Positions 40,168-47,667 of a stretch of 64,000 nucleotides of DNA are shown piece after piece. The position numbers and the translations under genes were made by a program. The notes beneath the pieces are model-generated. The model did no database searches. It saw nothing but the letters and a program-made list of their open reading frames with translations, and was not told the DNA's origin. This stretch comes from an uncultured Pelagibacteraceae bacterium (GTDB lineage Bacteria; Pseudomonadota; Alphaproteobacteria; Pelagibacterales; Pelagibacteraceae). The DNA lies in assembly GCA_902556505.1 (NCBI GenBank), contig CACDWM010000002.1, positions 90,451 to 154,450 of the forward strand, written 5' to 3'. Within the stretch, counting starts at the first letter, position 1, and each line of letters starts with the position of its first letter.

Positions 40168-41904
40168 ATGGCTATTAAAAAGAAGAAAATAGCAAAATCA
40201 AAGACCAAGAAAAAAAAATTTAACTTGGTTAAATCTTCTAGAAAAACAAAAAAGAAAAAAAAAGTTGTGACTAAGACGTCTGCGACTAAGAAGCGTTCTA
40301 AAAAATCTAGAAAAAATAATAAACTTAAAAATAAAACTAACAAGAGAAAGGTTAAAAAAATGAGTGCAGAAGCTATGAAAGTGTCTTCAGTACTAGATAC
40401 ATCTCACTTAAATGTTAAATTTCCATTTAAAGCTAAATATGGAAATTACATTAATGGAAAGTTTGTTGAGCCATTATCAGGTAAATACTTTGATAATCCA
40501 AGCCCAATTTCAAACGAGATAATCTGTTCTGTAGCACGATCAAATGAAAAAGATGTTGAAGCAGCATTAGATGCAGCTCACGCAGCTTTTAAAGAGTGGG
40601 GAAAAACTGATATAACTACAAGATCAAATATTTTAAATAAAATAGCTGACAAGCTTGAGGAAAACAAAGATATGTTGGCTGTTGCTGAATGTTTAGATAA
40701 TGGAAAGCCAATAAGAGAATGTATGGCTGCAGATTTAGCACTTGTAATAGATCATTGGAGATATTTTGCAGGTGTAATTAGAGCAGAAGAGGGATCGGTT
40801 GCTGAGATAAGCAATTCTCAATACTCTTATAATATTCCTGAGCCACTTGGTGTAGTTGGCCAAATAGTTCCTTGGAACTTTCCGTTACTGATGGCAACTT
40901 GGAAATTAGCTCCAGCACTTGCAGCAGGTAACTGTTCAGTTCTTAAACCAGCAGAACAAACACCAGCCTCTATTATGGTAATGATGGAATTAATTGGTGA
41001 TTTATTACCTCCTGGAGTTGTTAATATTGTAAGTGGTTTTGGATTAGAAGCAGGTAAACCATTAGCATCATCTAAAAGAGTTGCTAAAGTTGCTTTTACA
41101 GGTGAAACAACTACTGGAAGATTGATCATGCAGTATGCTGCTCAAAATATAATTCCTATAACTTTGGAATTAGGTGGAAAATCACCAAACATTTTCTTTG
41201 AAGATATCATGGATAAAGATGATGACTTTTTAGATAAATGTGTTGAAGGTTTTGTAATGTTTAATCTAAACCAAGGTGAAGTTTGTACTTGTCCTAGTAG
41301 AGCATTAGTTCAAGAATCTATCTACGATAAATTCATGGAAAAATGTATTGCTAGAACAAAGGCAGTTGTGCAAGACAATCCTTTGAAAATGGAAACAATG
41401 ATTGGTGCACAAGCTTCCATAGAACAGATGGAGAAAATAAAATCTTATCTAGATCTTGGAAAAAAAGAAGGTGCTAAAGTCCTTGCAGGTGGAAATACAG
41501 CTAAATTAAATAGTGGTCTTGAAAAAGGAAATTATATTGAGCCGACTATTTTTGAAGCAAACAACAATATGAGAATTTCTCAAGAAGAAATTTTTGGTCC
41601 AGTTGTTTCTGTGATTAAATTTAAAGATGAGGCTGAAGCTCTAGAAATTGCCAATGATACTCTTTACGGTTTAGGAGCAGGTGTATGGACAAGAAATGGA
41701 AATATTGCCTACAGAATGGGTAGAGCAATACAAGCAGGAATAGTATGGACAAATTGTTATCACGCTTATCCAGCACACTCACCGTTTGGGGGATATAAAC
41801 AATCTGGAGTTGGAAGAGAAACTCATAAAATGATGCTTAATCATTATCGTCAGAATAAGAATCTACATGTCTCTTATGCTGAGAAAAAATTAGGCTTCTT
41901 TTAA
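40168..41904 (+). CDS. NAD-dependent aldehyde dehydrogenase with a lysine-rich N-terminal extension
   Basis: ALDH motifs [41 protein letters not shown]. The core starts near ATG 40360 ([13 protein letters not shown]); the preceding 64 in-frame codons are strongly Lys-rich. Confidence 0.9.
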
Positions 41905-41925
41905 TATAACATACAATAATATATA

Positions 41926-41954
41926 CTGGCCCATGATTCTAATTCATGGGCCGG
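41926..41954 (+). other. GC-rich intercistronic stem-loop between ALDH and DUF779 genes
   Basis: CT-GGCCCATGA-TTCTAAT-TCATGGGCC-GG: 9-bp perfect core extended by U-G and C-G on plus-strand RNA; ends 9 nt before ATG 41964. Confidence 0.8.
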
Positions 41955-41963
41955 ACATTAAAA

Positions 41964-42317
41964 ATGAAAGTATCTGCAACAAAATCAGCCTTAAATCTTT
42001 TATCTGAACTTCAAGCAAGATATGGGGAAAAATTAATGTTCCATCAGTCTGGAGGTTGTTGTGATGGAAGTGCACCAATGTGTTTTCCAGAGGGTGAATT
42101 TCCACTTGGAGATAATGATGTAAAACTGGGTGAAATTGGAGGAGTGCCTTTTTATATGAATGGTGATCAATATGAAAAATGGAAACATACAGATTTAACT
42201 ATAGATGCTGTGAGTGGTATTGGAGGAATGTTTTCATTAGATAATGGAACAGGAAAAAGATTTTTAACAAAATCTGAAATTTGCTTAGTAGTAGATAACG
42301 ATCAAGAAAATAAATAA
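41964..42317 (+). CDS. DUF779 family protein
   Basis: MLFHQSGGCCDGSAPMCFPEGEFPLGDNDVKLGEI; ATG 41964 (MKVSATKSAL) preferred, since the 41946 start lies inside the hairpin. Confidence 0.88.
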   Translation: MKVSATKSALNLLSELQARYGEKLMFHQSGGCCDGSAPMCFPEGEFPLGDNDVKLGEIGGVPFYMNGDQYEKWKHTDLTIDAVSGIGGMFSLDNGTGKRFLTKSEICLVVDNDQENK

Positions 42318-45532: not shown

Positions 45533-46077
45533 TAAAAAATATTTTTTAAAAAATCTGGGAGACCATCAGGGTTTTTCCATAATCCACTTTTTCCACCTTC
45601 TTTAATTAATAATTTTACGTTACTAATTTTAAGATGTGGATTTACTATTTTGCTTAAATCATAAATTGTGATTAAGGCAGAGTTAACTCCCATTATAGCT
45701 TCCATTTCAACACCTGTTTTTGCTACTGCAGAAACTACGCAAAAAACTTCTAATGAACTGTCTAATTCATTCATAATTATTTTAGTAGCCGTGTGGTCAA
45801 TTGGAAGTGGGTGACATAGGGGAATAAGTTCACTTGTTTTTTTTACTCCCAACACAGCTGATACCTCGGCTAAAGTAATAGGATCTCCTTTGGGCATCTT
45901 CTTATTTCTAATTAGATCAAAAACCTCTTTTCCAACATAAATTTTACCTGAAGCAAGTGCTCTTCTAAAAGTTTCTTTTTTTGAAGAAACATCAACCATA
46001 TTGAAAGAGTTTTTTTGAAATATTTCTTTCGCCCAATCTTTAAGTTCTTCTTGATTTATAATTTTTAATTTTGACAT
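45532..46077 (-). CDS. moaC: Cyclic pyranopterin monophosphate synthase MoaC
   Basis: MVDVSSKKETFRRALASGKI; LIPLCHPLPIDH; TGVEMEAIMGVNSALITIYDLSK. Confidence 0.95.
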   Translation of the reverse strand: MSKLKIINQEELKDWAKEIFQKNSFNMVDVSSKKETFRRALASGKIYVGKEVFDLIRNKKMPKGDPITLAEVSAVLGVKKTSELIPLCHPLPIDHTATKIIMNELDSSLEVFCVVSAVAKTGVEMEAIMGVNSALITIYDLSKIVNPHLKISNVKLLIKEGGKSGLWKNPDGLPDFLKNIF

Positions 46078-47069
46078 TAGCCACCTGTGGTAGATAAATT
46101 TTTAGTTAAACCAGTTTCACCAAGTTCCAAATGGTGAGATTCTTTTTTAAATTTCATTTGACCCATTATAAGATCTTGCAATTCTTCAATTTGATCATCC
46201 TTTTGTAATAAATGTCTTATACTTATTCCAGTATTTCCAAATAGGCATAACCTTAAATCTCCTCTTGATGTAATTCTTAATCTATTACAGCTTCTACAAA
46301 AATTTTTAGAGTAGGGTGCTATGATTCCAAACTTTCCTTTATATTCTGGATTGATATAATTTAGTGATGGTCCTGCATCTTTACCTAGGGTTTGATAAAT
46401 CCAATTATTTTTATTTAAGTATTCTTTGAAGATTTTTGAAGATATATGGTATTTTTTAAAATAATCTAGGTTATCACCTGTTTGCATTAGTTCTATATAT
46501 CGAAAATCTACTTTATTCTTTTTTATAAATTCTCCCCAAGACTCAAAATCTTTTTCTGATGCATTTATTCCATTTAAAAGTACAGCGTTAATCTTAATAT
46601 TTTCAAAATATAAATCTTGAAGAATTTTAATTCCTCTCAAGATTCCAAGTAATCGATCATGACCTGTAACACTTTTGAATATATTTCTATCTAGACTATC
46701 AATGCTTATATTAATGCCATTTAAGCCACTTTCCACTAACTTCTTTGCTTTTTCATCTAAATGATAACCGTTTGTGGTAATTACAACTTTTTTTATTCCA
46801 GCCTCATTTTTTAAAATCTTAATTATATCAAAAAAATCTTTTCTTACTGTAGGTTCGCCACCAGTAAGTCTAATTTTACATACATTCAATCTTGAAAAAA
46901 CTTTTGCTAGACGTCTAATTTCCTCTAAGTGAAGAAATTTTCTATTATCGCTCTTATCAACTTGATAACCATTAGGTAAACAATACCCACACTTAAAATT
47001 ACATACATCAGTAATTGAAAGTCTTATATAGGGAAAAGTTCTACCAAAACTATCTCTTAACATTTTCAT
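46077..47069 (-). CDS. moaA: GTP 3',8-cyclase MoaA
   Basis: Radical SAM CNFKCGYCLP; LTGGEPTVRKD; C-terminal CRSCNRLRITSRGDLRLCLF. Confidence 0.95.
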   Translation of the reverse strand: MKMLRDSFGRTFPYIRLSITDVCNFKCGYCLPNGYQVDKSDNRKFLHLEEIRRLAKVFSRLNVCKIRLTGGEPTVRKDFFDIIKILKNEAGIKKVVITTNGYHLDEKAKKLVESGLNGINISIDSLDRNIFKSVTGHDRLLGILRGIKILQDLYFENIKINAVLLNGINASEKDFESWGEFIKKNKVDFRYIELMQTGDNLDYFKKYHISSKIFKEYLNKNNWIYQTLGKDAGPSLNYINPEYKGKFGIIAPYSKNFCRSCNRLRITSRGDLRLCLFGNTGISIRHLLQKDDQIEELQDLIMGQMKFKKESHHLELGETGLTKNLSTTGG

Positions 47070-47123
47070 TTAAGTTAAAGCTATCATAATTAATAAAATT
47101 AATCATGATAGAATTAACTTAAA
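47069..47123 (-). other. Long intercistronic stem-loop between the GYD gene and moaA, abutting the moaA start
   Basis: Plus strand TTTAAGTTAA ag CTATCAT a ATTAAT aaa ATTAAT c ATGATAG aa TTAACTTAAA. 23 Watson-Crick pairs of 26 positions, plus a G-U pair on minus-strand RNA, with a 3-nt loop. Confidence 0.88.
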
Positions 47124-47131
47124 ATCTAGCT

Positions 47132-47458
47132 TTAACCTGCTGGTTTATAATTAGCCATAGCTTTTGATGCCATGCCAGCAGCTTTACCCATATCCATTTC
47201 CTCTAATATGGTAAAATTTGTTATAGCTCCAGAAGCTTCAACTGCTAGCTTAACTGCTGCTGCACCTTCAAATCCAATACTACCACTCACAACTCCTACA
47301 AAATCATAAGCTCCTCTTGTGATCATAAAAGATTCCATCTTTCCTCCTACTGCCTCTGATAAAGCAGTAGCAGCTGCAGCTCTGTCTTGGTCTGGATTAC
47401 CTATAAATCCTTTAAAAGCTTGAGCTGTATAATTGCCCATTACTATAAATTTAGCCAT
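47132..47458 (-). CDS. GYD-domain-like small protein
   Basis: MAKFIVMGNYTAQAFKGFIGNPDQDRAAAATALSEAVGGKMESFMITRGAYDFVGVV; start at 47458 preceded by a strong SD. Confidence 0.75.
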   Translation of the reverse strand: MAKFIVMGNYTAQAFKGFIGNPDQDRAAAATALSEAVGGKMESFMITRGAYDFVGVVSGSIGFEGAAAVKLAVEASGAITNFTILEEMDMGKAAGMASKAMANYKPAG

Positions 47459-47462
47459 AGTT

Positions 47463-47469
47463 ACCTCCT
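47463..47469 (-). promoter_or_regulatory. Consensus Shine-Dalgarno AGGAGGT upstream of the GYD gene
   Basis: Minus strand AAAGGAGGTAACTATGGCT: full AGGAGGT 4 nt before ATG. Confidence 0.8.
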
Positions 47470-47667
47470 TTTTATAAATTAACATTATAGAAGAAAAACA
47501 ATTAATGAAAAAATTAAATATTAGTTATGTTGATTTTAAATATATTAATTTCAACTATTACTAGACACTTTAGTGCATTAAAATACTATAAAACTTAACT
47601 TCTATAAAAATAGCGATCCTGTTAAAGGTAAAATATTTTCAACTTTGTTTGAAAGAATTTAATTTAA

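What the first reader, a model, noticed from the sequence alone, without database searches (positions are those of the whole stretch)
47069..47123. Long stem-loop wedged between a GYD-protein gene and moaA
55-nt inverted repeat with 23 of 26 positions Watson-Crick and a 3-nt loop. The A88/C104 mismatch (plus-strand numbering 47088/47104) becomes G-U only on the minus-strand RNA, so the structure looks selected in the GYD-moaA transcript. The stem's 3' arm runs into the moaA ATG and there is no U-tract, arguing against a simple intrinsic terminator. Possible roles: translational control of moaA, an RNase processing or 3'-stabilising element that lets GYD protein outpace the Moco operon, or an undescribed Moco-linked leader.
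Basis: partly seen in the sequence, partly recalled or inferred. Interest (0 to 1): 0.62.

Follow-up and report, generated by a model that had tools for sequence, protein, structure and literature searches.

The report
GYD-gene 3' hairpin overlapping moaA promoter
In a SAR11 ocean bacterium, a 55-base hairpin sits at the end of the gene for a small GYD protein and, in the same bases, appears to hold the start signal of the next gene (moaA, cofactor synthesis), so it is probably a compact shared end-and-start signal and not a new RNA switch for the cofactor.

Summary
The hairpin is real: 24 pairs, -22.7 kcal/mol, z -5.9, one copy in the genome. Comparison with several hundred SAR11 (Pelagibacteraceae) genomes changes its meaning.

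(1) It belongs to the GYD gene. Nearly every GYD gene in the genus has a strong hairpin just after its stop codon, whatever lies downstream. The usual stem is AACTTCYRG…CYRGAAGTT, with compensatory changes. In a 61-genome scan this pattern occurred once in each of 11 genomes, always at a GYD 3' end.

(2) Its 27-bp inner core is also moaA's own promoter region. TATGAT lies 13 nt before the ATG. The core recurs upstream of moaA in relatives with no GYD there, and differs by 1.8% where moaA fourfold sites differ by 37%. Across the genus moaA has no Shine-Dalgarno (0/37) and a -10-like box close to the ATG (25/37 against about 11 expected). GYD always has a Shine-Dalgarno (28/28).

(3) The full stem forms only where GYD is upstream (mean -21.5 against -11.7 kcal/mol).

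Best reading: a GYD mRNA 3'-end hairpin superimposed on the promoter of a near-leaderless moaA. The Moco-leader reading finds no support. The 3'-stabiliser reading survives. There is no covariation within the element itself, and no RNA data were available.

The parts
47069..47123 (-). the hairpin: 10-bp outer stem, 2x2 internal loop, 14-bp inner stem, 3-nt loop; lies at the 3' end of the GYD transcript
   Evidence: fold -22.7 kcal/mol, z -5.94; single copy; full stem in 17 distinct GYD-moaA sequences, 23.7 of 24 pairs on average
47083..47109 (-). 27-bp dyad core ATCATGATTAATTTTATTAATTATGAT, read as the moaA promoter region
   Evidence: 1.8% divergence against 36.8% at moaA fourfold sites between GYD-linked and ABC-linked groups; only upstream of moaA, apart from one 3-mismatch hit, in 399 genomes; 23/28 match to a PhyH-moaA divergent promoter, above all 4100 shuffles
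47083..47088 (-). TATGAT, predicted -10 box of moaA, 13 nt before the ATG; its first T (47088) is the U of the G-U pair
   Evidence: present in all distinct members except L043/G358; same box in moaA upstreams L116/L177 and L187 that have a separate GYD hairpin; position enrichment in the genus
47132..47458 (-). GYD-domain protein gene (108 aa; start set by its strong Shine-Dalgarno)
   Evidence: PF08734 E 5.9e-14; Shine-Dalgarno in 28/28 distinct relatives
47464..47469 (-). Shine-Dalgarno AGGAGG of GYD
   Evidence: sequence
47484..47511 (-). GYD promoter-like site TTTTCA-16-TATAAT
   Evidence: 10 of 12 matches; the scan as a whole is not above shuffles
46077..47069 (-). moaA, first gene of moaA-moaC-moaD?-moaE
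   Evidence: PF04055 and PF06463; the first ATG (47069) is the start, because relatives lose the second ATG

Best explanation
The 55-nt hairpin is the 3'-end hairpin of the GYD mRNA, physically superimposed on the promoter of moaA. At the RNA level it ends or protects the strongly initiated GYD message: a barrier to 3' exonucleases and/or an inefficient terminator, with little read-through. At the DNA level its inner core (about -35 to the TATGAT -10) starts a separate moaA message only a few nucleotides before the ATG. moaA is therefore translated as a near-leaderless mRNA and not from the long transcript, where its start would lie at the foot of the stem. Shown here: the structure, its GYD linkage, conservation of the core without GYD, absence of a moaA Shine-Dalgarno, and position enrichment of -10-like boxes. 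Inferred: the transcription start site, termination or stabilisation, and leaderless translation. Also inferred: the hairpin was rebuilt when a divergent gene (PhyH) between GYD and moaA was lost, joining a remnant of the usual GYD hairpin's right arm (GCTAGA...AAGTTAATT) to the moaA promoter.
For: GYD genes in 28 protein/context clusters (78 distinct 3' ends) almost all have a hairpin directly after the stop, whether the neighbour is moaA, convergent PhyH or another gene. The usual stem covaries: C-G to U-A at one pair (18 and 11 of 31 sequences), A-U to G-C at the next. In a 61-genome scan it was found only beside GYD genes, once in each of 11 genomes (places compared). The core of the window's hairpin is kept upstream of moaA in 8 distinct sequences where GYD is replaced by a divergent MalK-type ABC ATPase, with 1.8% against 36.8% divergence at fourfold sites. 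There the stem is weaker, -11.7 against -21.5 kcal/mol. moaA has a Shine-Dalgarno in 0/37 and a near -10 box in 25/37 (null mean 10.8, maximum 18 in 200 shuffles); GYD has a Shine-Dalgarno in 28/28. The core resembles PhyH-moaA divergent promoters (L051 23/28; L077 21/28). In L187 and L145 the right arm of the GYD hairpin also abuts moaA's TTATGAT.
Against: One genome (G358, L043) has TGTGAT in place of TATGAT while keeping the RNA pair, which favours RNA over promoter constraint at that base (could be a single-cell amplification error). No good -35 box is recognisable, and the consensus scan does not call this promoter. The GYD-present against GYD-absent contrast rests on two related clades. 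No compensatory changes above shuffles occur within the element. No transcript data were available.
Confidence: 0.6

Rival explanations
1. The dyad is a DNA operator at the moaA promoter, bound by a dimeric regulator; the RNA hairpin is a by-product.
For: The 27-bp core is almost invariant with and without GYD and resembles older PhyH-moaA divergent promoters. In the ABC context only the inner 12-bp half-sites are fully kept.
Against: There is no second site in the genomes at up to 3 mismatches, so no regulon. The dyad is asymmetric at 47104/47088. The outer 10-bp stem and the two closing pairs are complete only where GYD is upstream, which an operator does not explain. GYD genes have a hairpin there anyway.
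Confidence: 0.2
2. Plain partial intrinsic terminator of GYD, with moaA expressed only by read-through.
For: Strong hairpin directly after GYD in most relatives; some GYD hairpins are followed by T-runs (L023, L020, L123).
Against: No U-run after the window stem (UGAAAAUGUU). Across other GYD hairpins the next 10 nt hold 4.4 U on average, close to what about 72% A+T gives. Read-through would leave moaA without a Shine-Dalgarno and with its start at the stem. moaA keeps its own -10 box.
Confidence: 0.12
3. 5'-leader of moaA: translational control or a Moco-responsive RNA.
For: The stem reaches the moaA ATG and lies before a Moco operon.
Against: Confined to two related clades of moaA. No Shine-Dalgarno to sequester (0/37). 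Not the Rfam Moco motif. In the ABC context the stem is weak and variable in its outer part. No covariation.
Confidence: 0.06
4. Dispersed repeat or mobile palindrome.
For: None found.
Against: Single copy per genome and found only at moaA, apart from one 3-mismatch hit in G167.
Confidence: 0.01

Closest known systems
3'-UTR stabilising hairpins of bacterial mRNAs (for example malE-malF REP-type or puf operon intercistronic hairpins; from general knowledge)
   Same: A strong hairpin between a strongly initiated upstream gene and weaker downstream genes of the same strand, without a U-tract
   Different: Gene-specific single copy; the same bases carry the promoter of the downstream gene; stability was not measured
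Rho-independent (intrinsic) terminators
   Same: Hairpin directly after the stop codon of GYD
   Different: No U-tract, A+T-rich long stem, no gap to the next start codon
MOCO_RNA_motif (Rfam RF01055) and other moaA leaders
   Same: Lies upstream of moaA
   Different: Simple hairpin, no Rfam match, absent from most moaA upstreams in the genus, own promoter inside the element
SAR11 single-hairpin motif between a hypothetical gene and rhtB (PMC2704228)
   Same: A lone conserved hairpin in a SAR11 intergenic region, possible terminator
   Different: Different genes and context; that motif is a bulged hairpin followed in about half of cases by 6-9 U
Leaderless mRNAs with a -10 box just before the start codon
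   Same: No Shine-Dalgarno, -10-like box 5-19 nt before the ATG in most moaA relatives
   Different: Transcription start not mapped here

Membership tests
Intrinsic terminator | Stable stem-loop after the upstream stop codon | tested here: met
Intrinsic terminator | U-rich tract directly after the stem | tested here: not met
   UGAAAAUGUU follows the stem; the terminator scan does not call it
mRNA 3'-end stabilising hairpin | Hairpin consistently at the 3' end of the same gene, independent of the downstream gene | tested here: met
   78 distinct GYD 3' ends in three contexts, 68 at -15 kcal/mol or better
mRNA 3'-end stabilising hairpin | Raises half-life or abundance of the upstream mRNA | not testable with these tools
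   needs RNA-seq or a reporter
Moco RNA motif / moaA leader | Match to the covariance model | tested here: not met
   no Rfam match at E up to 1
Moco RNA motif / moaA leader | Structure conserved upstream of moaA orthologues with covariation | tested here: not met
   two related clades only; covariation not above shuffles
Promoter of a near-leaderless gene | -10 box at a short distance before the ATG and no Shine-Dalgarno | tested here: met
   25/37 against null 10.8; Shine-Dalgarno 0/37
Promoter of a near-leaderless gene | Mapped transcription start at or near the ATG | not testable with these tools
   no TSS data
DNA operator | Dyad recurring at several promoters of a regulon | tested here: not met
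   one site per genome

The most novel reading that the evidence does not exclude
SAR11 GYD genes carry a so far undescribed, gene-specific 3' RNA hairpin family (AACTTCYRG...CYRGAAGTT, no relevant Rfam match in the loci tested) that controls the fate of the GYD mRNA. In the window's clade it has been rebuilt from moaA promoter DNA, so that one 55-bp sequence works as an RNA 3'-end signal and as a promoter, with the moaA start masked in read-through RNA.
Probability: 0.35. Interest if true: 0.5.

Novelty: new variant of a known kind. Interest (0 to 1): 0.36.

Why it matters
SAR11 are among the most abundant cells in the ocean and have very few regulators and tiny intergenic regions (median 3 nt in Cand. 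P. ubique, PMC2704228). If true, this shows how a streamlined genome packs an mRNA 3'-end signal and the next gene's promoter into the same bases, and gives a gene-specific 3' hairpin that can be tested directly in marine metatranscriptomes.

Tried and rejected
Rfam search of the window region and of eight relatives: nothing relevant. Dispersed repeat: rejected. Covariation within the hairpin: not above shuffles. First orientation pass mis-handled minus-strand loci and was redone. Canonical GYD hairpin in the window's own genome: absent, replaced by the present one. Literature on GYD in Pelagibacter: none found. Consensus promoter scan: finds a GYD promoter-like site but not the moaA one.

Full report
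OBSERVATION. The inverted repeat at 47069-47123 is as described. On the minus strand it folds to -22.7 kcal/mol (z -5.94, none of 200 shuffles as good), with 10 + 14 pairs, a 2x2 internal loop and a 3-nt loop; on the plus strand it folds to -18.6. It is single copy. In the 64-kb window only one other listed gene end with a gap of 25 nt or more, that of an aldehyde dehydrogenase at 40168-41904, has a comparable hairpin.

CONTEXT. Window genes on the minus strand: GYD protein (PF08734), then moaA, moaC, a small gene in the moaD position without a Pfam match, moaE, and an Mo-cofactor oxidoreductase. The relatives with record titles are Pelagibacteraceae (SAR11), many of them single-cell genomes.

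THE HAIRPIN TRACKS GYD. GYD genes were collected from 399 genus genomes plus the moaA-anchored loci. Among 78 distinct 3' ends, 68 fold to -15 kcal/mol or better within 75 nt of the stop: 31/39 with moaA downstream, 14/16 with convergent PhyH, 23/23 with other neighbours. The weak cases with moaA downstream appear to be mainly the L123/L125/L132/L138/L145/L148 clade, where the left arm has decayed. The usual stem is TTAACTTCYRG…CYRGAAGTTAA. In 31 distinct examples one pair is C-G in 18 and U-A in 11, and the next A-U in 25 and G-C in 4, the rest of the upper stem being nearly invariant. The pattern occurs once in each of 11 of 61 genomes, each time directly 3' of that genome's GYD gene (coordinates compared), and not in the window's genome. 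So a hairpin after GYD is the rule and needs no moaA. The window's clade has a different one in the same place.

THE CORE TRACKS moaA. The 27-bp core ATCATGATTAATTTTATTAATTATGAT occurs in 22 of 399 genomes upstream of moaA, plus one 3-mismatch hit (L192/G167) unrelated by flanking sequence. In one set GYD is upstream; in the other (L120, L121, L122, L124, L126, L131, L133, L141 and duplicates) there is no GYD, and a divergent MalK-type ABC ATPase lies upstream. The five sampled genomes of that set (G173, G223, G238, G295, G343) are not among the GYD-positive genomes. Between the sets moaA fourfold sites differ by 36.8% and the core by 1.8%. The core also resembles PhyH-moaA divergent promoters (L051 23/28, maximum of 4100 shuffles 21; L077 21/28, p 0.0024). 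It contains TATGAT at 47088-47083, 13 nt before the ATG. The same box precedes moaA in L116/L177 and L187, which have a separate GYD hairpin. Over 37 distinct moaA upstreams the best -10-like hexamer lies 5-19 nt before the ATG in 25 (null mean 10.8, maximum 18 in 200 shuffles) and none has a Shine-Dalgarno; all 28 GYD upstreams have one. moaA thus looks near-leaderless throughout the genus, with its promoter inside the hairpin here.

BOTH AT ONCE. With GYD upstream the stem keeps 23.7 of 24 pairs and -21.5 kcal/mol on average; without it 20.5 pairs and -11.7, the losses lying mainly in the outer stem and the two pairs that close the inner stem. This fits an RNA role for the outer parts only when GYD is transcribed into them. 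It is a contrast between two related clades and not independent replication, and covariation inside the element is not above shuffles.

ORIGIN (inference). GYD-hairpin-convergent PhyH-divergent moaA is one common arrangement (L044, L047, L157). In the window's clade the bases after the GYD stop (AGCTAGATTTTTAAGTTAATTC) resemble the right arm of a canonical hairpin (GCTAGAAGTTAATT), followed by a promoter that still reads CATGAT where PhyH starts in L047/L051. Loss of the hairpin's left arm and of PhyH would join the two and let AAGTTAA pair with TTAACTT before moaA. This resemblance was judged by eye for the right-arm part and not tested statistically.

MECHANISM. GYD is strongly initiated (TATAAT-type box; AGGAGG). 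Its RNA would end at, or be trimmed back to, the hairpin. There is no U-tract; for other GYD hairpins the next 10 nt hold 4.4 U on average, near composition, so exonuclease protection or Rho-plus-trimming is at least as likely as intrinsic termination. moaA would start from its own promoter. Read-through RNA would hold the moaA start at the foot of the stem with no Shine-Dalgarno, and be poorly translated.

LIMITS. No transcript data; many genomes are incomplete single-cell assemblies; L043 (TGTGAT) argues against the -10 in one genome; no -35 is evident.

Noticed in passing
window 41905-41970 (+): A second strong 3' hairpin (CTGGCCCATGA...TCATGGGCCGG, -20.8 kcal/mol with flanks) follows an aldehyde dehydrogenase gene, 41 nt before the next same-strand gene and without a U-run: the same architecture as GYD-moaA.
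   Followed up: no
L012, L017, L023, L029, L044, L047, L116, L157 and others, directly 3' of GYD genes: A gene-specific hairpin with conserved stem AACTTCYRG...CYRGAAGTT occurs once in each of 11 of 61 SAR11 genomes, only after GYD genes; no relevant Rfam match in the eight loci tested.
   Followed up: partly
L123, L125, L132, L138, L145, L148 (GYD-moaA junction): The canonical GYD hairpin's left arm has decayed while its right arm (CTAGAAGTTA), just upstream of the moaA -10 region, is kept: possibly the right arm is held by the moaA promoter.
   Followed up: partly
moaA and PhyH upstream regions in the genus loci: Neither moaA (0/37) nor the divergent PhyH gene (0/19) has a Shine-Dalgarno, while GYD always does: leaderless-type starts may be common in SAR11.
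   Followed up: partly
upstream of moaA, many loci: The gene upstream of moaA is highly variable between close relatives (several GYD types, PhyH, an ABC ATPase, others), a local hot spot of gene exchange.
   Followed up: no
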